Shown piece after piece: positions 4,486 through 18,195 of a stretch of DNA of 56,940 bases. The stretch's first letter is position 1. Each line of letters opens with the position of its first letter. The notes beneath the pieces were generated by a model. It saw only the letters and a list, made by a program, of their open reading frames with translations. It was not told where the DNA came from and did no database searches. Source of the DNA: Verrucomicrobiales bacterium (lineage in GTDB: Bacteria > Verrucomicrobiota > Verrucomicrobiia > Verrucomicrobiales > DEV007); the NCBI GenBank assembly GCA_002698785.1, contig PAAG01000040.1, forward strand, positions 1 to 56,940, read 5' to 3'. Position numbers and translations under genes: made by a program.

Positions 4486-5094
4486 GTGTCTCCTCCCGTT
4501 GATTTCGCCATTTTATCGTCGAAACTATGGCCGATGGAGATGTCAGAGAATAAGGCGACTCTCGCGAAGCGACTCGGCTGCACAGTGCACATTTCACCGC
4601 TGGAAATGAAGCTGCGTAGAATGCGTTTAAAGTATTCAAATTCGAGTGGTGATACCCTCGATGAGTGGCTTGTCGACATTTGCAACGCGCGTGGTTATTA
4701 CGCGATCTTTCGCCCCGGAGTGAAAGTTGCAGAGTACGACTATCCTGGGGAGAGCGAGCTTCTGGACGAGGAGTTGGCTGCGTCGCTCCTTCTCTTGTCT
4801 CGTGTCGATGAACCTCGAATCCTGAGGCTCGCTTCTCAAATCATCTCTCGGGCAGAAATTTATCCGGCTACATTTTCCCGTTTGGTTGAGATAGAGAGAT
4901 TGCAAAGGCAGGTGAAGATGCTGGCAAGGCAGGCATTGAAAGTATCGCCTCATCACTCAGCATGGGCTTCGATTTACAAAAGATTCCAGGATGCGTGCGA
5001 CTTTTCCGATTCATTGATTCATTGGACGCGACTTGCTGAACCGCAGATGGAACCCGGTAAAGTGGGCGCGAAAACTTGGAATCTGATCTCGTGA
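4486..5094 (+). CDS. Putative antitoxin or partner of a nucleotidyltransferase; unknown family
   Basis: Up to 202 aa if the GTG at 4486 is used; ATGs at 4534 and 4540 are credible alternatives (186 or 184 aa), and no ribosome binding site decides. I do not recognise the family. It is a soluble, mostly alpha-helical protein with no signal peptide and a basic segment (KLRRMRLKYS) near residue 45. It overlaps the next gene by up to 19 bp (or only 4 bp, GTGA, if that gene starts at 5091), so the two are translationally coupled. The pairing with a small nucleotidyltransferase-like protein resembles AbiE- or MNT/HEPN-type toxin-antitoxin pairs, in which the first gene is often the antitoxin; that role is inferred from arrangement only. 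Confidence 0.65.
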   Translation: MSPPVDFAILSSKLWPMEMSENKATLAKRLGCTVHISPLEMKLRRMRLKYSNSSGDTLDEWLVDICNARGYYAIFRPGVKVAEYDYPGESELLDEELAASLLLLSRVDEPRILRLASQIISRAEIYPATFSRLVEIERLQRQVKMLARQALKVSPHHSAWASIYKRFQDACDFSDSLIHWTRLAEPQMEPGKVGAKTWNLIS

Positions 5095-5645
5095 GTTCGA
5101 ATCCTGAGAAAATACTGGGCCGCCTGGATTATTACCTCGATACTCCCGTCGAATTAACCTTGTACGGTCGGGCTGCGCTTCTACTCGGTTTCGAAAAGCC
5201 GGATCCCGTTTTCGCCATGACCTGCGACGTCGATGCGGTATTCTGGATCGGTCAGGGACAGGAATTGCTGGAAGATACAAATTTCTGGGAAGCGGTAGAT
5301 CGGGTGAATCAAGAATTGGCCAGCGATAGACTCTTTATCAGCCATTTTTTTGAAGAGTCACAAGTGATCCTGACTCCAGGCTGGAAGTCTGACCGAGTTT
5401 CCATCTCGATCGATTATCTCCGAAACTTGAACCTCTACAGATTGTCAGACCATGACCTGCTACTTAGCAAACTCATGCGAGACGACCCACAGGATCGAAG
5501 CGATGCGGAATTCATCTGTCGGCAAGCAGGTTTCGGTTTGAGCGACGTCACGGATTTTATTCGGCGAGCTCGAGTTCCAGAGGAAACCGAGATTGTCGAG
5601 CAGTTCAAGATCGCCTCCGAAAAACTGCTTAAGAAATTATGCTAG
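5076..5645 (+). CDS. DUF6036-like nucleotidyltransferase (toxin-type)
   Basis: 189 aa from the ATG at 5076; the GTG at 5091, overlapping the upstream stop as GTGA, would give 184 aa. The N-terminal region fits the small nucleotidyltransferase fold: TLYGRAALLLGF (G-R/S-A-A-L-x-x-G in place of the GS motif) followed by a candidate metal-binding D-x-D (CDVDAVF). Family members are DUF6036 or AbiEii-type proteins that transfer nucleotides to RNA or protein and act as toxins. The C-terminal half is helical with many Asp and Arg. It is coupled to the upstream gene and lies inside a short direct-repeat pair, which supports a mobile toxin-antitoxin cassette. The activity itself is inferred. Confidence 0.65.
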   Translation: MESDLVSSNPEKILGRLDYYLDTPVELTLYGRAALLLGFEKPDPVFAMTCDVDAVFWIGQGQELLEDTNFWEAVDRVNQELASDRLFISHFFEESQVILTPGWKSDRVSISIDYLRNLNLYRLSDHDLLLSKLMRDDPQDRSDAEFICRQAGFGLSDVTDFIRRARVPEETEIVEQFKIASEKLLKKLC

Positions 5646-7408: not shown

Positions 7409-7681
7409 ATGTCGAAGGCAATTGTAGATCCCGACGAACTTCGGAAGTTCGCAGAAGAATTGAAACGTTTCAATTCCGACCTTCAAAACTCCCTCTCCTC
7501 CCTGAATGCCAGATTCGCTGCCCTTGGAGACACGTGGCAGGACAATGAGCAGGCAAAATTTGCCCAGGATTTCCAAGATACGATGAAGGTATTGCGCCGC
7601 TTTATTGAGAGTTCGAACCAGCAGGCACCTTTCCTGATGAGAAAGGCCCAGCGGATCGAAGAATATCTCAGTCAGCGATAA
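7409..7681 (+). CDS. WXG100 (ESAT-6-like) protein
   Basis: 90 aa, the length of a classical WXG100 protein, and all-helical. The helix-turn-helix centre is W43-Q44-D45 within LGDTWQDNEQAKF, with the following A49 and F51 at the spacing of the family pattern (W-x-G/D-x-A-x-x-F). No signal peptide and no Cys. WXG100 proteins are dimeric substrates or escorts of type VII secretion systems, recognised by an FtsK/EssC ATPase; such an ATPase is encoded three genes downstream in the same direction. This is the first gene of the operon, and the next gene starts 16 bp after its stop. The start ATG at 7409 has only a weak GTGAG upstream. The WQD variant instead of WXG is common in distant members. Confidence 0.85.
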   Translation: MSKAIVDPDELRKFAEELKRFNSDLQNSLSSLNARFAALGDTWQDNEQAKFAQDFQDTMKVLRRFIESSNQQAPFLMRKAQRIEEYLSQR

Positions 7682-7697
7682 GCCCCTGCCTCTCACC

Positions 7698-8171
7698 GTG
7701 TCAGATCGTGCCAATGTAACCAACATCGAGGCGCTGGAACGTTTTCGTTCGAGCCTTGTCCTGTTCGTGGAAAAAGCGAACGCCGTCCTCGATGAGGTCA
7801 GCGAGGAGGTAAAGCGCACTCGCATCTGGCTCCAGACCGAGCAGCGCCTGAACATCACTCGCGAGATCAAAAAGGGAAACCGCGATCTCGAGATGCTCGA
7901 GCAACAGCTCTTCACCGCCCGCCTGTCCCGCATCCAGAATGCGAAGACCGGGCAGCAGATGCAGATCAACAAAAAACGCCGGGAGATCCGCGAGCTGGAG
8001 GACAAACTCCGCGCCGTTTCCGCGTGGCTGCGAAATTACGATTCCACCGTCGAGAACGAAGCCCGCAAAGTCGAAAAGCTCCGTCACCTCCTCGATTCCG
8101 ACATGGCCAACGCTTTGTCTTTTCTCGCCGAGTCGGTGAAAAGCCTCGATGCGTATACTCAAGGAGAGTGA
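7698..8171 (+). CDS. Coiled-coil protein of the WXG100/EssC-like operon
   Basis: 157 aa with a GTG start at 7698. It is almost entirely predicted alpha-helix: an N-terminal helix containing a run of hydrophobics (SSLVLFVEKANAVLDEV), then long charged heptads with many Glu, Lys and Arg (about 45-140). The N-terminal helix resembles the first helix of WXG/LXG-like proteins (long amphipathic helix with acidic positions), but there is no clear WXG turn. No signal peptide or membrane segment. Sitting between two WXG100-type genes and an EssC-like ATPase, with 16 bp and 9 bp gaps, it is probably a structural partner, chaperone or substrate of the same machine. No function is recognised from sequence alone. 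Confidence 0.75.
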   Translation: MSDRANVTNIEALERFRSSLVLFVEKANAVLDEVSEEVKRTRIWLQTEQRLNITREIKKGNRDLEMLEQQLFTARLSRIQNAKTGQQMQINKKRREIRELEDKLRAVSAWLRNYDSTVENEARKVEKLRHLLDSDMANALSFLAESVKSLDAYTQGE

Positions 8172-8180
8172 TCAAAACAA

Positions 8181-8396
8181 ATGAGCCTGAATCACAGCAA
8201 AGGACGAATGATGGGGCTCTCCCGCGAATTGTTGAAAACGTGGCAGGAGACCCAGGCCCACTGGCACGACCAGAAAAGCCGCGAATTCGACAGCACCTAC
8301 ATGCAACCCATGTTCGACGCCATGGACAACGCCGTGACCGCCATGGACGACCTCGACAAAATGCTCCAGAAACTCCGCAAAGATTGTGAAACATAA
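8181..8396 (+). CDS. Mini WXG100-like protein
   Basis: 71 aa, shorter than standard WXG100 proteins (about 90-100). A short first helix with W21 leads to a WXG-like turn W28-H29-D30 followed by F36 and Y40, and then a long second helix ending KLRKDCET. It therefore looks like a WXG100 protein with a shortened first helix. The ATG at 8181 lies 9 bp after the upstream stop, and the gene overlaps the ATPase gene by 11 bp, so the three products are likely made together. It could be the heterodimer partner of the 90-aa WXG100 protein, in analogy with EsxA/EsxB pairs; that is inference. It has a single Cys, near the C-terminus (C69). Confidence 0.7.
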   Translation: MSLNHSKGRMMGLSRELLKTWQETQAHWHDQKSREFDSTYMQPMFDAMDNAVTAMDDLDKMLQKLRKDCET

Positions 8397-11300
8397 GCCG
8401 ATATCCACTCCCGAATCGATCGACCTCCTTCAGCGAGTGACCGACGGCTTGCGATCTTTTTCCGAGCGGGAAAAAGGAATCGAGCGAGCCCGCAAGCTCA
8501 AGAACTCCAACTTCCGCCAGAGCCTCATCGAGCGGGAGGAACTCATCGAAAAGGAAAACGCCGAGGCCGTCTCCCAGCTGCGCAACCGAGCCAACGAAGA
8601 GAAAGCCCGCATCGAAGAGATCTTCACCCAGCGCAAGCTCCGCATCGACAAAGCCCAGATCGACGTCCGCAACCGAGTCATCTCCGAGATCCAGCACACC
8701 GAGGGCCAGCGCCGCGCCGTCCTCCAGCGCAAATTCATGCAGGCCGGGAAAGCACGCGAGACCGACCTCGCCGAGAACAACGCCCTCCACGACCAGCGCC
8801 TCGCCGAATCGAACAAGTGGCAGAAACGCTTCACCACGCTGGAAAAAGAATCCGTCAAATCCTTCAACGGCTTTCACTCCCTTCGCTCCGAGTTGATCAG
8901 CGCTCTCAAAAATCTCAGCGAAGCCTCCGCCAAAGGCATCTCTCCCGATCGGCTCGAAGAGATGCACCGTGACCTCCGCGAGCGATTGAAAAAGCATCTC
9001 CGAAATCCCCTCATCGCCTGGTTCAACGGCTTCCCACTCACTCTCCAGATTTTCCTCATCCTCGCCATCGGTGGGGGACTCCCATTTCTTCTCAGCCTTG
9101 TCGACGTCACCGCCGTCAGCTATCCCGTCGCCATTGGTGGTGCCGTTGGGCTCTCCATCCTTGTCGGCGTTCTCTTTCTCGTCGCACGGGTGAAAGCCCT
9201 CGCCTTTGCCTCCGACTACAACGACTCCCTCCTCGAAGCCCGCAAATCCCGGCTCCAGTTCCGCGAGTGGGTCGAGCATTCCTACAAGCTCCGCAACCAG
9301 CAGATCGAAAGCGAATTCCAGAAAACCAAAGCCGAATTCGACAAAGGACTCGCCACCGCCGCGAAGGAAGAAGAAACCTCCGCCGCTGGCAAAAAATACA
9401 GCGGTCCCGAAGACGTCGAGGCCCGCGCCACTTCGCTCAAAGATCGCCTCGCCGGAGCCAAACGCGCCCGCCTCGATTCCGTCGGTCGCAGGCTCAATCG
9501 CGACATCGCCGAGATCGAAAAGAAACGCGAAGAAAGCCTCCACGCCCTTTCCGGCGACGCCCAGACCTCCGAGGCTGGGATGATCGAAGAGCTCGACCGC
9601 CAGTTCGGCTCCCTCGTCGACCAGTGGGAAAAATCCATCATCCCCGCCCACACCACGCTTAAGGAAGAGACAACCACCGACCCCACCACAGTCGAGTGGC
9701 TCGAGGCAGGCCCCGACCAGTGGACCGCCCCCGACACCTTTTCCGAGACCGTTCGCTACGGCAGTATCTCCCTTTCCGGCGCCGCCGAGGAGCTGCCCCT
9801 CCCGCAGTCCGATCGCATGCAGCTCCCCGATGCGCCCGAGTACACCTTGCCCCTGCGACTGCGCGTTCCCGACTCCGCCTCCATCCTTGTCGAGACAAAG
9901 CAGTTCGGTCGTGACGAAGCCATCAAGTTCCTCAACTACCTCTCCCTCGCCTGGCTCGCCGATTCGCCCGCCGGTCGACTGTCCTTTTCCTTCATCGATC
10001 CCGTCGGCCTTGGCGAGAGCTTCGCCGGGCTCATGCACCTTGCCGACTACGAAGAAATCCTCATCAACTCCCGCATCCGCACGCAGGAAGACCAGATCGA
10101 GGCCCGCCTCGGCGAACTCTGCGATCACATGGAAAAAGTGATCCAGATGTATCTCCGTAGCGACTACGAGACCATCACCCAATACAACGAAGCCGCCGGC
10201 ACCATTGCCGAGCGATACCACTTCGTCGTCATCGCCGATTTCCCCAAAGGCTTCTCCGACCTCGCCGCCAAGCGTCTCCAGAGCATCGCCGCCTCCGGCG
10301 CCCGATGCGGAGTCTTTCTCCTCGTCCACAGCGACATGCGCGCCGAGCTTCCGCCCGGATTTGAAATGGACGACCTCCGCCGCGCTTGTGTCTGTGTTAG
10401 GAGTAATATCGACGGCTTCTTCCTCAAAGACAATCCCGTCTCCGGGACAAAGCTCCAACTCCTGCAGCCACCCGCGCCTGACAAGTTCGCCACCTGGGTG
10501 CATCGGATAGGGGAGGCCAACCGCGACTCCAACCGCATCGAGGTACCCTTCTCTTTCATCGCTCCCGACGAGGAGGAAATGTGGACCTCCAATACCGCCT
10601 CCGAGCTCACCGTTCCCATCGGGCGCAGCGGCGCGACGAAGCTCCAGCAATTCGCCCTCGGCAAAGGCACCTGCCAGCACGCCCTCATCGCTGGTAAGAC
10701 CGGTTCCGGTAAATCGACCCTCTTCCACATCCTCATTACCAACCTCGCCCTCTGGGCCGATCCCGACGAAGTCGAGTTCTACCTCATCGACTTCAAAAAA
10801 GGCGTCGAGTTCAAATGCTACGCCGACGCCCAGCTTCCCCATGCCCGCGTCATCGCCATCGAGAGCGACCGCGAGTTCGGCCTCAGTGTCCTCCACCGCC
10901 TTGACGAAGAGCTCAAACACCGCGGCGAACTCTTCCGTACCGCCGGCGTGCAGGATGTCGCCAGCTACCGGGAAACAGAGGGCGCCGTTCCCATGCCGCG
11001 CACCCTTCTCCTCATCGACGAGTTTCAGGAGTTCTTTACCGAAGACGACCAGATCTCCCAGCAGGCCGCCGTCCTCCTCGATCGCATCGTCCGGCAGGGC
11101 CGGGCCTTTGGCATCCATGCCGTCCTCGGTTCCCAGACCCTTGGCGGAGCCTTCACCCTTGCCCGCGCCACCCTTGGCCAGATGACCGTCCGCATCGCCC
11201 TTGCCTGTAACGAGGCCGACGCCTACCTCATCATGGACGACACCAATCCCGCGCCCCGACTCCTTACCCGGCCCGGCGAAGGTATCTACAACGACCGCGC

Positions 11301-12243
11301 CGGAGCCGTCGAGGCCAACTCGCCCTTCCAGGTCGTCTGGCTCGAGGAAAAAGAACGCGTCCGCTACCTCGAGAAAATCCGGGACCGCGCTCGCGCCACC
11401 GGCAAGACCGGCATGGGCCAGGTCGTCTTCGAAGGCAACGCCCCCGGCGACGTCACCCGCGATGCCGAAGTCGCCGAACTCATCGCCAGCGGCCCGCGCG
11501 AAGCCGAGGCCCCCACCATCTTCGTCGGATCTCCCAACGCCATCAAAGGCCCCACCGAGATCCGCTTCGAGCGCCAGAGCGGCTCCAACCTCCTTATCGT
11601 CGGTCAGCGCGACGACGTCGTCGACACCATGGTCGCCGTCGGCCTCCGCATCCTCCGCGCCCAGCTCGGCGACGACGCCCGTCTCATCCTCATCGACAGC
11701 CGTTTCAGCCAGCCCGGAACCAAAACCTGGTACCACCAAGTCATCGAAAAGGTGAGGGGAGTCGAAACGCCCGACGCCCACGAGATCGGCAACGTCATCA
11801 ACGAACTCGCCACCAGCATGAAAGCCGTCTCCGAGGGCGAAGCTCCCGCCGGACCGCCCGTTATGCTCATCATCCCGTCCCTCCATCGCTACAAAAAGCT
11901 TCGCTACGAAGAAGACTTCAGCTTCTCCCTCGACGAAGAGGCTGAGGCCAAGCCCGCTACCTCCCTCAACGAATTGATCTGCGAAGGGCCCGGCTGGGGC
12001 TACCACACCATCCTGTCACTCGACTCCTACAACAACGTCAACCGCACCCTCGGTCGAAAAGCCGCCGGAGAATTCGAGAAAAAGATCCTCTTCCAGATGT
12101 CAGCGTCCGACTCCGCCAGCCTCATCGACACCGGCGCCGCCTCCGACTTAGGATTGAACCGAGCCCTCTACTACGACGAACCCACCGGCGAGCAGGAGAT
12201 CTTCCGGCCGTATGCACAACCGCCGCTGGAGTGGTTTGGTTAG
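8386..12243 (+). CDS. EssC/FtsK-like secretion ATPase with coiled-coil N-terminus
   Basis: 1285 aa from a GTG at 8386, overlapping the mini-WXG gene. Order: cytoplasmic coiled coil (about 15-205), two membrane helices (about 217-240 and 247-269), a second coiled coil (about 275-420), a beta-rich linker, then FtsK/SpoIIIE-type ATPase domains. Domain 1 is intact: Walker A GKTGSGKS (770-777, K776) and Walker B LLLIDE (D878, E879). Domain 2 is degenerate: at 1073 the loop reads GQRDDVVD without GK-S/T, and near 1158 the Walker B position is IIPSLH. Two membrane helices before tandem FtsK domains is the EssC/EccC layout, but FHA domains are absent and replaced by coiled coil. Paired with WXG100-type genes it should be the motor of a type VII-like system. 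Very GC- and C-rich codon use, which produces a long antisense open frame. Confidence 0.88.
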   Translation: MKHKPISTPESIDLLQRVTDGLRSFSEREKGIERARKLKNSNFRQSLIEREELIEKENAEAVSQLRNRANEEKARIEEIFTQRKLRIDKAQIDVRNRVISEIQHTEGQRRAVLQRKFMQAGKARETDLAENNALHDQRLAESNKWQKRFTTLEKESVKSFNGFHSLRSELISALKNLSEASAKGISPDRLEEMHRDLRERLKKHLRNPLIAWFNGFPLTLQIFLILAIGGGLPFLLSLVDVTAVSYPVAIGGAVGLSILVGVLFLVARVKALAFASDYNDSLLEARKSRLQFREWVEHSYKLRNQQIESEFQKTKAEFDKGLATAAKEEETSAAGKKYSGPEDVEARATSLKDRLAGAKRARLDSVGRRLNRDIAEIEKKREESLHALSGDAQTSEAGMIEELDRQFGSLVDQWEKSIIPAHTTLKEETTTDPTTVEWLEAGPDQWTAPDTFSETVRYGSISLSGAAEELPLPQSDRMQLPDAPEYTLPLRLRVPDSASILVETKQFGRDEAIKFLNYLSLAWLADSPAGRLSFSFIDPVGLGESFAGLMHLADYEEILINSRIRTQEDQIEARLGELCDHMEKVIQMYLRSDYETITQYNEAAGTIAERYHFVVIADFPKGFSDLAAKRLQSIAASGARCGVFLLVHSDMRAELPPGFEMDDLRRACVCVRSNIDGFFLKDNPVSGTKLQLLQPPAPDKFATWVHRIGEANRDSNRIEVPFSFIAPDEEEMWTSNTASELTVPIGRSGATKLQQFALGKGTCQHALIAGKTGSGKSTLFHILITNLALWADPDEVEFYLIDFKKGVEFKCYADAQLPHARVIAIESDREFGLSVLHRLDEELKHRGELFRTAGVQDVASYRETEGAVPMPRTLLLIDEFQEFFTEDDQISQQAAVLLDRIVRQGRAFGIHAVLGSQTLGGAFTLARATLGQMTVRIALACNEADAYLIMDDTNPAPRLLTRPGEGIYNDRAGAVEANSPFQVVWLEEKERVRYLEKIRDRARATGKTGMGQVVFEGNAPGDVTRDAEVAELIASGPREAEAPTIFVGSPNAIKGPTEIRFERQSGSNLLIVGQRDDVVDTMVAVGLRILRAQLGDDARLILIDSRFSQPGTKTWYHQVIEKVRGVETPDAHEIGNVINELATSMKAVSEGEAPAGPPVMLIIPSLHRYKKLRYEEDFSFSLDEEAEAKPATSLNELICEGPGWGYHTILSLDSYNNVNRTLGRKAAGEFEKKILFQMSASDSASLIDTGAASDLGLNRALYYDEPTGEQEIFRPYAQPPLEWFG

Positions 12244-12675: not shown

Positions 12676-14520
12676 ATGTGGCACGATAATGAGACACAAA
12701 AAGACTTCGTAAATTTTACGGCGGTGGCGAAGACAGTGTCGACATTGATCCAAAAGTCAGGAAGTGAACCCCTGTCAATCGGAGTTTGTGGCGGCTGGGG
12801 GATAGGGAAATCTTCTATGGTTTCACTGATTCATCAAGAACTGAAAAATAGTGAGGATGACTACCTGTTTATTGAGTTTAACGCATGGTTGTACCAAGGG
12901 TTTGATGATGCACGAGCTTCATTGATGGAGGCAATTGCCCGCCCGCTCTTAAAGAAAGCAGAGGGGAACGAATCAGCAATGGAAAAGGCAAAAGGTTTTT
13001 TAAAGCGAGTGAATTGGGTTCGGTCTGCTGGGGTTGTCGCAGGTACTGCTGCATCTCTGTCTTTAGGGCTACCTCCCGTTGGCTTGCTAGGAGAGATTTG
13101 GAAGGCTGGGCAGGGGATCGCTGATGGTGATATCACGGAAGATGATTTCGAAGCTGCGCAACAGGCTGCAAAAAAGGGAGCAGAAACCGGCAAAAAACTA
13201 CTTAAGCCGAAAGAGAAAAAATCTCCCCCTGAAGAAATTGATCACCTTCGCGAATTGTTTAAACAAACGCTCAAGGCTTTGGATGTGAAGCTTGTAGTTC
13301 TTGTTGATGATTTGGATCGATGCTTACCCGAAGTTGCGATTTCAACCCTTGAAGCGATGAGGCTATTCCTCTTTATGGAAAACACCTCCTTCATCATTGC
13401 TGCTGATGATACAATGATCAGACAAGCGGTTAGGTCACATTTTGGAAAAATCGAAATCGATGACGATTTAGTGACAAACTACTTTGATAAGCTCATCCAG
13501 ATTCCAGTCAGGGTGCCGCCCTTGGGAACGCAGGAAGTGAGAGCTTTTCTCTTCCTGCTCTTTGTTAGTCGGAGCAATTTACCCGAGGAAAAAAAGGAAG
13601 AAGTTAGGCAGTCGGTCTGCGGTCGGCTAAGTGAGAGTTGGCAAGGGAATAGCGTAGATCAGAAGTACATCGAATCTGTAATAGGAAACTGTCCTGAGGA
13701 ATTGTCATCGGAGTTCGAATTAGCAACACGAATTGCACCTTTGATGACAACTTCTGAGAAGATTCGTGGAAATCCGCGACTGATAAAGCGTTTCCTAAAC
13801 ACCCTTTCCATTCGATTGGCGATTGCTAAAAGTCAGGAGGTGTCTGTGGATGAGGCGGCTCTGGCAAAAATGCTGTTATTTGAGCGGTGCGGAAACCAAA
13901 CGTTATACGCGACCTTAGTTCGAGCGATCAACGAAAGCGAAGATGGAAAGCCCGAATTTCTAGCTGATTTAGAGAAGGAAGCAAGAACAGGGAAACCTAT
14001 TTTGGATGATGAGTGGTCTGATGAATTTTCCAGGCAATGGCTATCTTTGTCACCACAGTTCGCTGACTTAGATTTGCGTGGGGTAGTTTACGCAAGTAAA
14101 GACTATCTTCCGATTGTATCAAGCGGAGATCATTTATCGCCTGAGGCGGTCCAAGTTTTGGAGACTCTATTGAGTTCTAAGCCAAAAGGGGCAAGTAAAG
14201 TTCTGGCTGATGAATTGAAAATATTGCCCAAGCGGGAACGTGTATTGATTACTGAAAAAGTGCTATCTCGAGCACGTAGTGAGCAGAAATGGGGAACACC
14301 TCCGGCGCTTTATCACCTATTGACATTGATTAAGGCTGATGGTGAGTTGGAAGTCCCAATTTCCCGATTCTTTAAAAATCTCCTTGGTGTGCAAATTGAT
14401 GCCAGCATAGTTCCGACACTTAGCAGTCTGCAATTAGCAAAGAAAGAAATCTTTCCTGAGTGGCTTAATAAGGATATCTCCACTCCTGTTAAGAAAGCGA
14501 TTGAAGTAGAAACGACGTAA
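12676..14520 (+). CDS. qatA: QatA: KAP-family P-loop ATPase of the Qat anti-phage system
   Basis: 614 aa. KAP-type NTPase: Walker A GWGIGKSS at 40-47 (K45), a family-typical FIEFNAWLYQG after it (about 61-71), and Walker B VVLVDDLDRC at 207-216. A short hydrophobic segment (about 115-140, VVAGTAASLSLGLPPVGLL) sits inside the P-loop domain, as is usual in KAP ATPases, and may touch the membrane. The C-terminal half is helical. In the four-gene Qat system (ATPase, QatB, QueC-like QatC, TatD-like QatD), described as a phage defence system by Gao and colleagues in 2020, this is the first gene; here all four follow with overlapping or abutting frames. How the ATPase contributes to defence is not known from sequence. 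AT-richer than the neighbouring operons, consistent with horizontal transfer. Confidence 0.93.
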   Translation: MWHDNETQKDFVNFTAVAKTVSTLIQKSGSEPLSIGVCGGWGIGKSSMVSLIHQELKNSEDDYLFIEFNAWLYQGFDDARASLMEAIARPLLKKAEGNESAMEKAKGFLKRVNWVRSAGVVAGTAASLSLGLPPVGLLGEIWKAGQGIADGDITEDDFEAAQQAAKKGAETGKKLLKPKEKKSPPEEIDHLRELFKQTLKALDVKLVVLVDDLDRCLPEVAISTLEAMRLFLFMENTSFIIAADDTMIRQAVRSHFGKIEIDDDLVTNYFDKLIQIPVRVPPLGTQEVRAFLFLLFVSRSNLPEEKKEEVRQSVCGRLSESWQGNSVDQKYIESVIGNCPEELSSEFELATRIAPLMTTSEKIRGNPRLIKRFLNTLSIRLAIAKSQEVSVDEAALAKMLLFERCGNQTLYATLVRAINESEDGKPEFLADLEKEARTGKPILDDEWSDEFSRQWLSLSPQFADLDLRGVVYASKDYLPIVSSGDHLSPEAVQVLETLLSSKPKGASKVLADELKILPKRERVLITEKVLSRARSEQKWGTPPALYHLLTLIKADGELEVPISRFFKNLLGVQIDASIVPTLSSLQLAKKEIFPEWLNKDISTPVKKAIEVETT

Positions 14521-15383
14521 TGGGTACTTCGAAAGGTAGTTCGGGACCCGTTGGGGGAGTTCCACTGATTCCATCTTGGGTGGATACCGGAGACGACGAT
14601 GCGGGCAGTACTGAAGAAATCGAAAAGGATCACGATAATCAAGAAGATTCTGATCCATCAGAAAATCAGAACAATCCAAAATTGGAGGCGCCTCCACCCG
14701 TACTTGCACCCGTTGCAAGATTTCGTTCTGCGAGATCAAATCTCAAGTCGTTTGGGGAAACTGGTGATAAGGAGAGCCTGAAGAGAGGCTTGGCGCACTA
14801 TAGCAGACGCGGTCTCGGCGGTTCCGTTAATGCAGGTGCGAGAATGGGAAAAACTTCCCAAACTGCTCAACGCCTAGTTGATACCTTCAGCAGGCTGCGA
14901 GATGGCGAAGAACTTCGCAATGATGATCGGGAAATAAATCGAGAAGCTCTACGTGGAAAGTCCGCTCGGGAGATCGGAGATATCGTAATCGAAATCGTAC
15001 GCCCAAGTGATGGAACTCAGGATGCCGAAGCAAACAGAGAATCCTTGAATTCAGCACTCTCGGAGGTTGCTCAGGAATTTGAAGATTTAGACTTTGCGAG
15101 TCTTACCGATGACCAGATGGAGTTTCTTGTCGAGCGGTATGTCGGTCACGATATTTGCCACCGAATAGAACTCGATGTTGGCCAAGTAATCATCGAAAAA
15201 TCGGGAATAGCGGAAGGATACCGCAGGTTGGAGGAAATGTTAGAGTTTGTGCACGGAAAGGTTCATGCGGAATTTGATAAAATGCGGGCAACTGATAAGC
15301 GGATCTCATCATCGAATGCGTCCGCTTTTACGAATTCAATTATTGTTTCAACATTTAACGTTTTTGAGGAGTACTTGCATTGA
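14520..15383 (+). CDS. qatB: QatB of the Qat anti-phage system
   Basis: 287 aa. The start overlaps the qatA stop by one base (TAATG). No enzymatic motif. The N-terminal 70 residues are acidic and low-complexity (Asp, Glu, Pro, Asn), probably disordered. Around residues 95-125 is a Gly/Arg-rich segment (RRGLGGSVNAGARMGKT), and the C-terminal 150 residues are helical. The call rests on position: second gene of an ATPase-QatB-QueC-TatD operon, where the second protein is always a family-specific protein without known domains. It overlaps qatC by 4 bp (TTGA). Confidence 0.85.
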   Translation: MGTSKGSSGPVGGVPLIPSWVDTGDDDAGSTEEIEKDHDNQEDSDPSENQNNPKLEAPPPVLAPVARFRSARSNLKSFGETGDKESLKRGLAHYSRRGLGGSVNAGARMGKTSQTAQRLVDTFSRLRDGEELRNDDREINREALRGKSAREIGDIVIEIVRPSDGTQDAEANRESLNSALSEVAQEFEDLDFASLTDDQMEFLVERYVGHDICHRIELDVGQVIIEKSGIAEGYRRLEEMLEFVHGKVHAEFDKMRATDKRISSSNASAFTNSIIVSTFNVFEEYLH

Positions 15384-16639
15384 AAGTCGCTTGTGTATCA
15401 GAAAGTAAGCTTGATCTAATTAGGGCGGATCGAAAGTTTTCCCTGTTCAGCTCAACCGAGAATAAAGGAGTTGGAGCAATTGGAATACCAATTCAAGGGC
15501 TCGTTGCTCGGAAAGGTCTTGTGCCCTCTGTCAGAGCATGGGATCTGATGGCGATTTGTCTATCGGCTATCGGAGCCGATCATGCAGTCACTCGACGAAA
15601 GAGCCCAGATGGATGGACAAGAGAGATCGAGTTAGTTGTTTCCGTCATTGATCACGATTTTTGGTCGGAGCAGTCCAAAAATTTAGAGAAGACTTTCTCT
15701 TTTTTGACTGGTGATCTGTGGTCAATTCAATTCGTTGGAGATGGTGCAGAGTTTTTTAAGCCTTCGAAAAGATCGCTATTCAAGCAAGAGTCAGTTTCTT
15801 TGCTGTCAGGAGGATTGGATAGTTTAATTGGTGGGATTGATCAGGTTGCTGACGGACGCCGGCCGTTATTGGTTAGCCAGGTTTCGACAGGCGATAAAGA
15901 AAAACAGAAGTATTTTGCAAACCACCTGAAGTGCGAACACATTCAACTGCCACAGTCTGTCCATGCGGTGTCGGAACAAACTGAAGGTTCAACACGAGCT
16001 AGGTCCCTTGCATTTTTTAGTTATGGTATCTTGGTTGCAACATGCTTAGAGCGTTATGGCAATGGTGGTGGCGTAGATCTGATTGTTCCGGAAAACGGTT
16101 ACATCAGTTTAAACGTTCCATTCACGCCAATGAGAATAGGTAGTCTGAACACGAAGACCACTCACCCCGTATTTGTTCGTTCCCTGCAAGAAGTTTTGAA
16201 CGCGGCGGAGATTCGTGTCTCTCTTCGAAACCCGCATCAATTTGATACAAAAGGGGAAATGATGGCGAATTGTGGTGATCAAGAATTGCTCAAAAGCTTA
16301 GCCTCTCAAAGTTCGAGTTGCGGAAAGGGGGGGCGCATCCATATGCACTGCGGGAGATGTGTACCTTGCCTCGTTCGTCGTTCTGCTTTTTTTGTTTCTG
16401 GTTTCGAAGACGAAACAAAATACATGTATTCGGATCTCTCTAAAAATGATAAAAATCATCTGCATTACGATGATGTGAAATCCGCTTGGCTCGCCATACA
16501 GCGATTAAAAAAGGTTGGGGTGGAAAAATGGGCGGGGAGCGCGATTAGTTCTGCGCTCCTTGGTGGAAATGTTTCAGACTATTATTCAGTAGCTGAACGC
16601 GGGTTGAAGGAAATTAAAAGATTTTTAGAATCGAATTGA
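15380..16639 (+). CDS. qatC: QatC: QueC-like PP-loop protein of the Qat anti-phage system
   Basis: 419 aa from a TTG start at 15380 that overlaps the qatB stop (TTGA). The PP-loop ATP-pyrophosphatase motif SGGLDS is at 143-148, inside a QueC-like fold. Near the C-terminus is a Cys cluster that fits the QueC zinc site: C-G-K-G-G ... H-C-G-R-C-V-P-C (about 314-331). The 130-residue N-terminal extension before the PP-loop is typical of defence-linked QueC homologues rather than of queuosine biosynthesis enzymes. Together with the TatD-like neighbour it defines Qat. Defence-type QueC proteins are thought to modify protein or nucleic-acid termini through 7-deazaguanine-like chemistry; which substrate is used here cannot be seen. 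Confidence 0.93.
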   Translation: MKVACVSESKLDLIRADRKFSLFSSTENKGVGAIGIPIQGLVARKGLVPSVRAWDLMAICLSAIGADHAVTRRKSPDGWTREIELVVSVIDHDFWSEQSKNLEKTFSFLTGDLWSIQFVGDGAEFFKPSKRSLFKQESVSLLSGGLDSLIGGIDQVADGRRPLLVSQVSTGDKEKQKYFANHLKCEHIQLPQSVHAVSEQTEGSTRARSLAFFSYGILVATCLERYGNGGGVDLIVPENGYISLNVPFTPMRIGSLNTKTTHPVFVRSLQEVLNAAEIRVSLRNPHQFDTKGEMMANCGDQELLKSLASQSSSCGKGGRIHMHCGRCVPCLVRRSAFFVSGFEDETKYMYSDLSKNDKNHLHYDDVKSAWLAIQRLKKVGVEKWAGSAISSALLGGNVSDYYSVAERGLKEIKRFLESN

Positions 16640-17401
16640 ATGGACGTCGATTTTCACTGCCACCTTGATCTTTACTCAAATCCTACCGAAGTCGCAGCTG
16701 AAGCTGATTCAATCGGTTGCTACGTGCTATCAGTCACTACAACTCCTGCCGCATGGGAGGGAAATCAGTCGAGGTTTGCTCGATTTGATCGAATCAAGGT
16801 TGCTTTGGGATTACACCCTGAACTTATTGGATCTCGAGGAAAAGACCTGAAACTATTTTTGGAGCTATTGCCGTGTGCGGAATATGTCGGGGAGGTGGGG
16901 ATAGATGGCTCATCGAGATTTAAAAGCTCAATTGAGAGGCAGAAATACGCTTTCGAGCGGGTTTTGAGTGAATGTGCAAATTTAGGTGGTCGGATCATGA
17001 GTATTCACTCAAGGGGAGCCGAGGATGAAGTCTTACAGATGCTGGAGAAGAATTGTGGGGCGTCAGTTCCCGTTCTCCACTGGTTTACCGGGACTATAAA
17101 GCAGGCAAAGAAAGCCATACAGCTTGGATGTTGGTTCAGCTTAGGTTATCCCATGTTGAGATCTGCAAGAGGTCGGAGGCTCTTGAAAGTATTACCTTTT
17201 GATCGGGTTATCACAGAGACTGACGGTCCTTTTGTTGCCGTGAAGGGAAAATCAATGGTTCCGGCTGAGGTATTTCAAGTTCGCAATCTTCTCGCAGAAG
17301 AGTGGAACTTGTCTGAAGACGAAGTCGAAATGAGGATTCGAGAAAACTTCCGTAGGTTAATGCGGTCCAAACCGAGAATGGTGAGGGTAGAAGGGAATTA
17401 G
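16640..17401 (+). CDS. qatD: QatD: TatD-like nuclease of the Qat anti-phage system
   Basis: 253 aa; the ATG abuts the qatC stop. TatD metal-hydrolase motifs in order: H6-x-H8 (DFHCHLD), GLHPEL, GEVGIDG with the metal-binding Glu, SIHSRGA, HWFTG, and TETDGPF near 194-200. TatD enzymes are metal-dependent DNases of the amidohydrolase fold; in Qat the member is the presumed nuclease effector or processing enzyme. Length matches standalone TatD proteins. Last gene of the operon; the terminase-like gene follows after 53 bp with a very different codon style, so the operon appears to end here. Confidence 0.93.
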   Translation: MDVDFHCHLDLYSNPTEVAAEADSIGCYVLSVTTTPAAWEGNQSRFARFDRIKVALGLHPELIGSRGKDLKLFLELLPCAEYVGEVGIDGSSRFKSSIERQKYAFERVLSECANLGGRIMSIHSRGAEDEVLQMLEKNCGASVPVLHWFTGTIKQAKKAIQLGCWFSLGYPMLRSARGRRLLKVLPFDRVITETDGPFVAVKGKSMVPAEVFQVRNLLAEEWNLSEDEVEMRIRENFRRLMRSKPRMVRVEGN

Positions 17402-17454
17402 TTCGTTTCTTTCGCTTGTCGACATTTTTATGTGGTTATGTTAGAATTAACCGC

Positions 17455-18195
17455 ATGAAAACACAATCAAACACACGCCCCCTAAACTCCCGCCAAAAAC
17501 ACTTCCTCGACCGCTACCACATCACGGGGAACTTGGGCCAATCCTGGCTCGACGCGGGCTACAACTGCTCCTTCGAAAGCGCCTCGGGAAATGCCGGTCG
17601 CATCCTCCAGCGTGAGGACGCACAGGAATACCTAGCCGAACTCCACCAATCGACTCGTCAGCATACCGGCCTGACCCGCGAAAAGATCCTCGACCGGCTC
17701 GAAGAAATCATCGACGACCGCACCGCCAAAAACCGCGACGTGATATGGGCCTGCCGCGAAGCCGGACGCATGGTCGGTGCCTACACTCCCAAACCCGAGC
17801 CAAAAGAACCCGTTCGCGACACCCTTCACGAATTCATCCGAAGAGTCCGGGCAGGAGAACCCGTCGAAGACCTCGAACCCCACCATTTGCCACCCATCCA
17901 CCACCAACCGGAACCCGAAACTTATCAGACACCCACACCCGAAGCCCCAATCTCAGAGCAACAGCATCAAGAGCCCGAGCCGCAACCCGAACCAGAGCCC
18001 ATCGCACAGGACATGACAAAGCATCCGCACTATCACCAGCGGGTAAAAGCCGAAATGGAGGCCGACCGCCGCGACCCCAACCGCGACCCAAACTGGCATC
18101 CACAGTACAACCCCTACTACGACCCAACCAACCAAGCCTACCAAAAGAGCAGACCCCGCAAAAACATAACCATCCGCCCCAGGGGAATGAGGTAA
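17455..18195 (+). CDS. Phage terminase small subunit-like protein (orphan)
   Basis: 246 aa from the ATG at 17455; a TTG at 17416 in the same frame would add 13 residues and is less likely. Residues 8-95 match the terminase small-subunit pattern: LNSRQKHFLDRYHI, then a GN..QSWLDAGY helix-turn-helix, repeats of the type GNAGRILQREDAQEYLAEL, and LTREKILDRLEEI. The rest is a low-complexity tail very rich in Pro, Glu, Gln and His, unlike phage proteins of this type, ending in a basic segment. No large terminase, portal or capsid gene is near. It may be a prophage relic or a domesticated DNA-binding protein. The coding strand is strongly A- and C-rich, unlike qatABCD. Confidence 0.75.
   Translation: MKTQSNTRPLNSRQKHFLDRYHITGNLGQSWLDAGYNCSFESASGNAGRILQREDAQEYLAELHQSTRQHTGLTREKILDRLEEIIDDRTAKNRDVIWACREAGRMVGAYTPKPEPKEPVRDTLHEFIRRVRAGEPVEDLEPHHLPPIHHQPEPETYQTPTPEAPISEQQHQEPEPQPEPEPIAQDMTKHPHYHQRVKAEMEADRRDPNRDPNWHPQYNPYYDPTNQAYQKSRPRKNITIRPRGMR

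What the first reader, a model, noticed from the sequence alone, without database searches (positions are those of the whole stretch)
7409..12243. Type VII secretion-like operon in a probable Gram-negative: WXG100, coiled-coil, mini-WXG and EssC-like ATPase
Seen: four tightly spaced genes (gaps of 16 and 9 bp, then an 11-bp overlap) coding a 90-aa WQD-type WXG100 protein, a 157-aa coiled-coil protein, a 71-aa WXG-like protein and a 1285-aa two-helix FtsK-type ATPase. Established: WXG100 proteins plus an FtsK/EssC ATPase are the minimal signature of type VII/ESX systems. Inference: the set is a self-contained secretion or membrane-targeting machine in an organism with an outer membrane, without the usual EsaA/EssA/EssB or EccB/D/E partners. 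It is the strongest candidate here for an undescribed system.
Basis: partly seen in the sequence, partly recalled or inferred. Interest (0 to 1): 0.75.

Follow-up and report, generated by a model that had tools for sequence, protein, structure and literature searches.

The report
Minimal WXG protein motor in Verrucomicrobiota
Four adjacent genes, kept together across many bacteria of one outer-membrane-bearing phylum, look like a stripped-down, membrane-anchored relative of the type VII protein export machine of Gram-positive bacteria, with no toxin cargo attached; whether it exports anything is untested.

Summary
The four genes are real, at the stated coordinates and spacings. Gene 1 passes the WXG100 cut-off; gene 3 is a short WXG relative by cross-profile evidence only; gene 2 is modelled as a long two-helix hairpin; gene 4 is an EccC/EssC-class ATPase rather than cell-division FtsK by sequence, with two membrane segments in most relatives and one active motor domain between two degenerate ones. 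69 of 80 related loci keep all four in order; hairpin and ATPase genes occur in the same 29 of 56 genomes. No neighbour is shared across lineages. In 8 genomes of the genus the set shares one chromosomal site by at least one flank; 5 species have that site empty; 3 others carry it elsewhere. The adjacent Qat defence system was seen beside no other copy. EssB, YukD and EccB were not found above cut-off in 10 carrier genomes.

Not wholly undescribed: a 2012 footnote names WXG plus a three-domain ATPase in Verrucomicrobia; soluble, nuclease-linked relatives were described in 2024. New here: the membrane-anchored, payload-free four-gene form. Best reading: a minimal inner-membrane WXG export motor (about 0.5). 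New variant of a known kind.

The parts
7409..7681 (+). gene 1: WXG100 protein, 90 aa, W43-Q-D45 turn motif
   Evidence: Pfam PF06013 E=1.1e-9 over cut-off; family profile best PDB match HP0062 3fx7 E=4e-10; W43 and D45 invariant in 17 rows
7698..8171 (+). gene 2: 157-aa long helical hairpin protein
   Evidence: no Pfam family over cut-off; AlphaFold2 model two helices 10-77 and 80-156, mean pLDDT 87; conserved next to genes 1, 3, 4
8181..8396 (+). gene 3: 71-aa mini-WXG protein, W28-H-D30, C-terminal DCE
   Evidence: invariant W21, W28, D30, K32, E35, F36, C69 in 16 rows; its family profile matches WXG100 proteins of distant relatives at about 1e-7; against: hhalign 1.2%
8386..12243 (+). gene 4: 1285-aa EccC/EssC-class ATPase
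   Evidence: PF01580 2.9e-31; EccCa 4e-32; Foldseek 4nh0 EccC 1.8e-29
9013..9207 (+). membrane-segment region of gene 4 (residues 210-274)
   Evidence: hydropathy scan
9703..10527 (+). gene 4 DUF/D0-like degenerate domain (residues 440-714)
   Evidence: model matches EccC5 DUF 7npt Z 14.1, rmsd 4.4, 221 aligned; YukB DUF 9qks Z 13.8, rmsd 3.8, 229 aligned
10585..11280 (+). gene 4 active motor domain (residues 734-965), Walker A at about 770-778, Walker B DE at 878-879
   Evidence: Walker A and B patterns in 74 of 74 full-length relatives; profile closer to D1 than D2 of three EccC/EssC proteins
11320..12240 (+). gene 4 C-terminal degenerate motor-like domain (about residues 979-1285)
   Evidence: no P-loop pattern there in 74 of 74; model matches EccC/EssC motor domains

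Best explanation
A minimal, membrane-anchored type-VII-like export motor. Gene 4 sits in the inner membrane by its hydrophobic pair, probably assembles as a hexamer and uses one active FtsK-type domain. Genes 1 and 3 are small WXG-type hairpins, probably pairing with themselves or each other, that engage the ATPase and are moved across or seated in the inner membrane; gene 2 is a longer hairpin that travels with or docks on them, equivalent in place to the trafficking half of nuclease-bearing proteins in distant relatives but without a payload. Shown: gene content, order, co-occurrence, domain make-up, motif conservation. Inferred: hexamer, pairing, direction, export, passage beyond the inner membrane.
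For: All-or-none co-occurrence of hairpin and ATPase in 56 genomes, 29 of 56 each, same set; WXG in 29 of 56, same set minus one contig edge (G017) plus one contig end (G022). Order kept in 69 of 80 loci and in 5 of 5 opened loci of more distant carriers (L131-L135). Two membrane segments in 74 of 86 full-length ATPases, as in EccC/EssC; DUF-like domain matching EccC5 and YukB. Walker A and B in 74 of 74. WXG profile finds HP0062 and EsxB structures. WXG is the most conserved member (mean column identity 79% against 67% ATPase cytosolic part, 55% mini, 46% hairpin), as expected of a machine part. Neighbour sample shows no clear excess of defence genes.
Against: No secretion evidence of any kind. 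No EssB, YukD or EccB above cut-off, so the channel is unexplained; one sub-threshold YukD-like match in the own genome (25.1 bits, cut-off 27). No payload-bearing homologue of gene 1 or 2 elsewhere in the carriers by profile, except a TerY-P type WXG in G005 and one weak hairpin match in G066. Fold Z-scores do not separate EccC from DNA-moving FtsK. In three loci with long upstream sequence (L061, L107, L109) WXG is not beside the ATPase.
Confidence: 0.5

Rival explanations
1. A membrane-anchored conflict or stress system (anti-phage or envelope sensing) in which WXG proteins and hairpin regulate the ATPase and nothing is exported, like the TerY-P/CoCoNuT-linked relatives.
For: Relatives L115, L126, L127 lie between VWA, PP2C and kinase genes with a coiled-coil protein of 436-442 aa; the paper on such loci predicts defensive roles (PMC11090510, passages). 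The window set is followed by QatABCD.
Against: QatA-D seen beside none of the other cassettes in 110 stretches, 29 of which have only about 1.5 kb of flank. PADLOC hits in 70 of 139 nearest neighbours: mad3 4, mad8 4, AriA 3, methyltransferase models 1 each; in 70 distal genes: mad3 1, mad8 1, AriA 1, E1-E2 models 1 each; the excess is ABC-type ATPases, at least three of them the ABC-F neighbour.
Confidence: 0.22
2. A DNA translocase for chromosome or plasmid movement, with WXG and hairpin as accessory factors.
For: FtsK motor structures fit the central domain as well as EccC does (Z 22.5 against 23.5).
Against: Sequence prefers EccC/EssC by 25 orders of magnitude in E-value over FtsK; the genomes keep a separate FtsK; WXG100 partner.
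Confidence: 0.1
3. A payload-less remnant or decoy of toxin-bearing type-VII-like systems, kept as immunity, jamming or competition module.
For: L114 and L130 carry gene 2 relatives with an extra C-terminal domain (hairpin score above 200 of 200 shuffles each); patchy presence and empty sites.
Against: Walker motifs intact in 74 of 74 and WXG 79% identical across 17 rows: not decaying.
Confidence: 0.13

Closest known systems
Solo WXG plus YueA-like three-domain ATPase, 'mobile versions of T7SS' (Zhang 2012, PMC3482391, Table 1 footnote 6; passages seen)
   Different: Footnote gives no gene set; here four genes, membrane segments, hairpin and mini-WXG, and a partly fixed chromosomal site, so mobility is at best partial
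EssC-like ATPase and two WXG100 proteins of Type III-A CoCoNuT / TerY-P loci (PMC11090510; passages seen)
   Same: Central motor domain only active, N-terminal coiled coil, two WXG-type proteins, a coiled-coil protein in the set
   Different: Those lack membrane segments, carry a restriction-endonuclease-like fusion and a further small gene, and lie in defence operons; the same-genus genome G005 has this other type as well (L120)
H. pylori HP0062-HP0066 'WXG100 secretion system' (PMC4978471 and PMC3397514; passages seen)
   Same: WXG100 with W-x-D turn (HP0062 is the best PDB match) beside an FtsK/SpoIIIE ATPase in a diderm
   Different: Cluster reported with an HNH/EndoVII nuclease; the Helicobacter plasmid relative L118 has a WHH nuclease and SUKH neighbour, absent here
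ESX/Ess type VII secretion (T7SSa, T7SSb)
   Same: WXG100 substrate class; membrane ATPase with DUF and D1-type motor
   Different: EccB, EssB, YukD not found above cut-off; one motor-like domain fewer than DUF plus D1-D3; no LXG, PE or PPE partner seen

Membership tests
Type VII secretion (T7SSa/T7SSb) | WXG100 protein | tested here: met
   PF06013 over cut-off for gene 1
Type VII secretion (T7SSa/T7SSb) | EccC/EssC membrane ATPase with two membrane segments | tested here: met
   EccCa 4e-32 although under the equivalog cut-off; two segments in 74 of 86
Type VII secretion (T7SSa/T7SSb) | three motor domains D1-D3 after the DUF | tested here: not met
   only three alpha/beta domains in residues 440-1285, the first DUF-like; the alternative numbering D1-D2-D3 without DUF is not excluded
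Type VII secretion (T7SSa/T7SSb) | EssB and YukD (T7SSb) or EccB (T7SSa) partners | tested here: not met
   0 of 10 carrier genomes over cut-off for PF10140, PF08817, TIGR03919; controls: B. subtilis rings for the first two, two actinobacterial plasmids for the third
Type VII secretion (T7SSa/T7SSb) | EccD | tested here: inconclusive
   0 of 10 over cut-off, two weak matches, no control genome rang
Type VII secretion (T7SSa/T7SSb) | EssA, EsaA, EccE, mycosin | not tested
   not searched
Type VII secretion (T7SSa/T7SSb) | ATPase-dependent secretion of WXG protein | not testable with these tools
   needs experiment
Solo-WXG three-domain-ATPase group (Zhang 2012; Bell 2024) | only the central of three FtsK-like domains active | tested here: met
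   Walker A and B in the central domain 74 of 74; other P-loop-like matches 2 of 74, both near the membrane segments
Solo-WXG three-domain-ATPase group (Zhang 2012; Bell 2024) | two WXG-type proteins | tested here: met
   gene 1 over cut-off; gene 3 by cross-profile hits only, hhalign negative
CoCoNuT/TerY-P-linked form (Bell 2024) | no membrane segments; coiled-coil nuclease fusion | tested here: not met
   membrane segments present; gene 2 is hairpin only
Cell-division FtsK | groups with FtsK | tested here: not met
   tree of 40 motor domains: family 14 rows (100/95) with L114 (96/92), FtsK rows apart (long branches flagged)

The most novel reading that the evidence does not exclude
A third, self-sufficient kind of type-VII-like export system in diderm bacteria: one membrane ATPase, two WXG-type proteins and a payload-free hairpin suffice to move protein across the inner membrane without any EccB/D/E or EssA/EssB/EsaA partner, and nuclease-bearing relatives arose (or this form arose) by gaining or losing the payload on the hairpin gene.
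Probability: 0.4. Interest if true: 0.75.

Novelty: new variant of a known kind. Interest (0 to 1): 0.52.

Why it matters
What the irreducible core of type VII export is remains open, and nearly all work is in Gram-positive bacteria and mycobacteria. A four-gene, payload-free set in diderm bacteria, some of them in isolate records (Verrucomicrobium sp. BvORR034 and BvORR106, L073 and L091), is small enough to move into E. coli K-12 whole and ask whether WXG plus ATPase alone export anything.

Tried and rejected
Defence-island reading from the neighbouring Qat: Qat seen beside no other cassette; its third-position GC 0.40-0.45 against 0.57-0.79 for the cassette.

One fixed site throughout the genus: my first reading, rejected on recount. 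Eight genomes share the site by at least one flank (window, G025, G028/L034, G007/L035, G030/L036, G031/L037, G032/L040, G004/L046), but L039, L044 and L045, with long flanks, have none of the six marker genes, so the cassette has moved or been gained more than once.

Gene 2 as homologue of every toxin N-terminus: supported only for L114 and L130 (10.3 and 13.0 bits, 0 of 200 shuffles reach it); not for L115 (122 of 200), L118 (35), L127 (21), weak for L120 and L126 (7 each) and L128 (4). Pfam finds no nuclease in L115, L120, L127 or L128; ParB_N in L130 is under cut-off.

Gene 2 as LXG fold: fold search gave only generic coiled coils, best E 0.011. Gene 3 and gene 2 against the WXG profile by hhalign: 1.2% and 0.5%; Pfam WXG100 matches 1 of 16 mini-WXG members.

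Viral contigs: 6 patterns, no relative. Phage records: 205 with a match, none covering 80% of the query. RNA families: none. tRNA: none. Promoter scan: one site, 1.1 expected.

Papers: searches gave no description of this four-gene set; only an open-licence library was searched. Anantharaman 2012 is not held; its content is known here only as cited in PMC11090510.
Full report
Observation. The four ORFs, spacings and overlap are as described. Pfam gives WXG100 for gene 1 (1.1e-9, over cut-off), FtsK_SpoIIIE for gene 4 (2.9e-31), only a sub-threshold WXG100 for gene 3 (0.019), nothing over cut-off for gene 2. In NCBIfam the ATPase scores EccCa 4e-32, EccCb 4.6e-26, EssC 5.6e-23, FtsK 4.6e-7, all under their cut-offs. 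The own genome has one WXG100 over cut-off, this one.

Distribution. These records overlap with the genomes, so the two sets are not independent. 69 of 80 loci hold all four genes in order (L098 among them with an interrupted ATPase frame). Of the 11 others, eight have the ATPase frame beginning within 1.2 kb of the start of the stretch (in L105 there was still room for a mini gene, and none was found); L061 lacks WXG and hairpin, L107 and L109 lack WXG, with about 9 kb or more upstream. In L061's genome (G075) hairpin and WXG lie on another contig. Among 56 relatives the hairpin and the full-size ATPase occur in the same 29; WXG in 29, losing G017 (contig edge) and adding G022 (contig end); G027 has an ATPase fragment at a contig start. 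In a sample of 383 genomes of the phylum 27 have a WXG match at 1e-5; 25 of these are strong (4e-37 or better), two (G274, G432) only of the divergent type. Five strong ones were opened and all five have the four genes.

Anatomy. Gene 1: W43 and D45 invariant in 17 rows, mean column identity 79%; its profile finds HP0062 of H. pylori first among solved structures (4e-10), then EsxB entries (5e-7), EsxA 0.04. Gene 3: two invariant tryptophans, W28-x-D30, invariant C69 in 16 rows; cysteine in the last six residues in 83 of 85, but absent in the deep members L131 and L134. Its profile matches WXG100 proteins of distant systems at about 1e-7 in small sets, while hhalign between the two families is negative. 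Gene 2: model of two long helices, pLDDT 87. Gene 4: hydrophobic segments in the N-terminal third, two in 74 of 86 full-length copies; five distant ATPases (L114-L118) showed none in an equivalent pair, three of them one single weak window. Walker A and B in the central domain in 74 of 74; no other P-loop apart from two matches near the membrane segments. Model of residues 440-1285 (pLDDT 76.5, pTM 0.53): Foldseek EccC 1.8e-29, EssC 1e-17, FtsK 2.3e-10. VIA-align: EccC 4n1a Z 23.5, rmsd 8.5, 466 aligned; FtsK 6t8b Z 22.5, rmsd 3.7, 255 aligned, a tie. The first domain matches the DUF of EccC5 (Z 14.1, rmsd 4.4, 221) and of YukB (Z 13.8, rmsd 3.8, 229). The central-domain profile prefers D1 over D2 in all three EccC/EssC proteins tested (2.1e-21 against 4.5e-14; 1.8e-22 against 6.1e-7; 1.6e-19 against 6.1e-16). 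I therefore read DUF, active D1, degenerate D2, no D3; PMC11090510 numbers similar proteins D1-D2-D3 with D2 active, which the fold data do not exclude.

Relatives with payload. L115 (Caballeronia plasmid), L126 and L127 (Verrucomicrobiota): VWA, WXG100, a 436-442 aa coiled-coil protein, a 113-125 aa protein, a 76-82 aa protein, an ATPase, then VWA (in L115 after a CARF gene, in L126 after a 592-aa gene), PP2C, kinase. L120, in a genome of the window's own genus, is the same kind, its small gene not called. L118 (Helicobacter plasmid): WXG100, hairpin plus WHH nuclease (1.1e-11), SUKH (1.6e-6), 77 aa, ATPase. L114 (Rhodococcus plasmid) and L130: the hairpin protein is 314 aa; the N-terminal part scores above 200 of 200 block shuffles (10.3 and 13.0 bits), and both end in a similar stretch that I read as ParB-like (Pfam ParB_N 0.033 in L130, under cut-off; nothing in L114). 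In a tree of 40 motor domains the verrucomicrobial family is one clade (100/95) with L114 next (96/92), inside a larger group of 27 rows (80/95, drawn open) apart from EccC/EssC, FtsK and SspH-like rows; long branches are flagged. So the nearest relative carries an extra domain on gene 2 that this family lacks; the direction of change is not resolved.

Context. In 81 stretches no flanking family occurs in more than 11, and that one mixes an ABC-F gene with noise. Eight genomes of the genus share the window's site by at least one flank (ABC-F gene on one side, the F1/F6 genes on the other); G012 and G006 have both flanks 163 and 205 bp apart with no cassette, G021 and G011 have ABC-F and F1 side by side, G026 has them about 0.9 kb apart; G008 and G020 lack the cassette with other neighbours. 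L039, L044 and L045 carry the cassette elsewhere. In the window QatABCD and a terminase-small-subunit-like gene lie between the ATPase and F1. Neighbour PADLOC counts show no clear excess beyond ABC-type ATPases; Pfam of the 70 sampled neighbours includes CTP synthase, Hsp90, DNA ligase, RNase E/G, fructose bisphosphatase.

Partners. EssB (PF10140) and YukD (PF08817) 0 of 10 over cut-off with B. subtilis as control; weak matches in G255 and, for YukD, in the own genome at 25.1 of 27 bits. EccB 0 of 10, control 2 of 2. EccD 0 of 10 over cut-off, no control rang. EssA, EsaA, EccE and mycosin were not searched.

Mechanism and standing. I commit to a minimal inner-membrane WXG export motor (0.5). 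That Verrucomicrobiota are diderm and that FtsK-type motors work as hexamers is recalled. Prior art: a footnote in PMC3482391, the soluble form in PMC11090510, the Helicobacter cluster in PMC4978471 and HP0062 in PMC3397514 (passages of each seen). It fails tested features of T7SSa/T7SSb (partners, number of motor domains), so it is not filed as a member; it can still work like one.

Noticed in passing
12676-17401: Complete QatABCD anti-phage system (QatA 2.6e-158, QatC 2.6e-99, QatD 5.2e-87, QatB 1.4e-43 in PADLOC) with low third-position GC, beside no other copy of the cassette examined.
   Followed up: partly
17416-18195: Terminase-small-subunit-like gene (PHROG 51, 1.4e-13) just after Qat, perhaps a phage remnant that came with it.
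   Followed up: no
4486-5645: A 202-aa gene overlapping a DUF6036 nucleotidyltransferase-like gene, found beside no other cassette; possibly a toxin-antitoxin-like pair inserted upstream of the ABC-F gene.
   Followed up: no
7966-12006: A 1346-aa antisense ORF over the ATPase, a by-product of high third-position GC; not counted as a gene.
   Followed up: no
L120 (G005:C85): The window's own genus also holds the TerY-P/CoCoNuT-linked type: VWA, WXG100, 445-aa coiled-coil protein, 120-aa protein, ATPase, VWA, PP2C, kinase.
   Followed up: partly
L122 (G080:C12): An f2/g19 genome of the same order carries two 97-aa WXG100-like genes, a 316-aa gene and an 836-aa ATPase: another arrangement.
   Followed up: no
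8385-8393 and relatives: Near-invariant cysteine at the C-terminus of the mini-WXG (83 of 85), lost in the deep members L131 and L134; its role is unexplained.
   Followed up: partly
L119: A faecal 'phage' contig (MT836827) encodes a 1423-aa relative of the ATPase.
   Followed up: no
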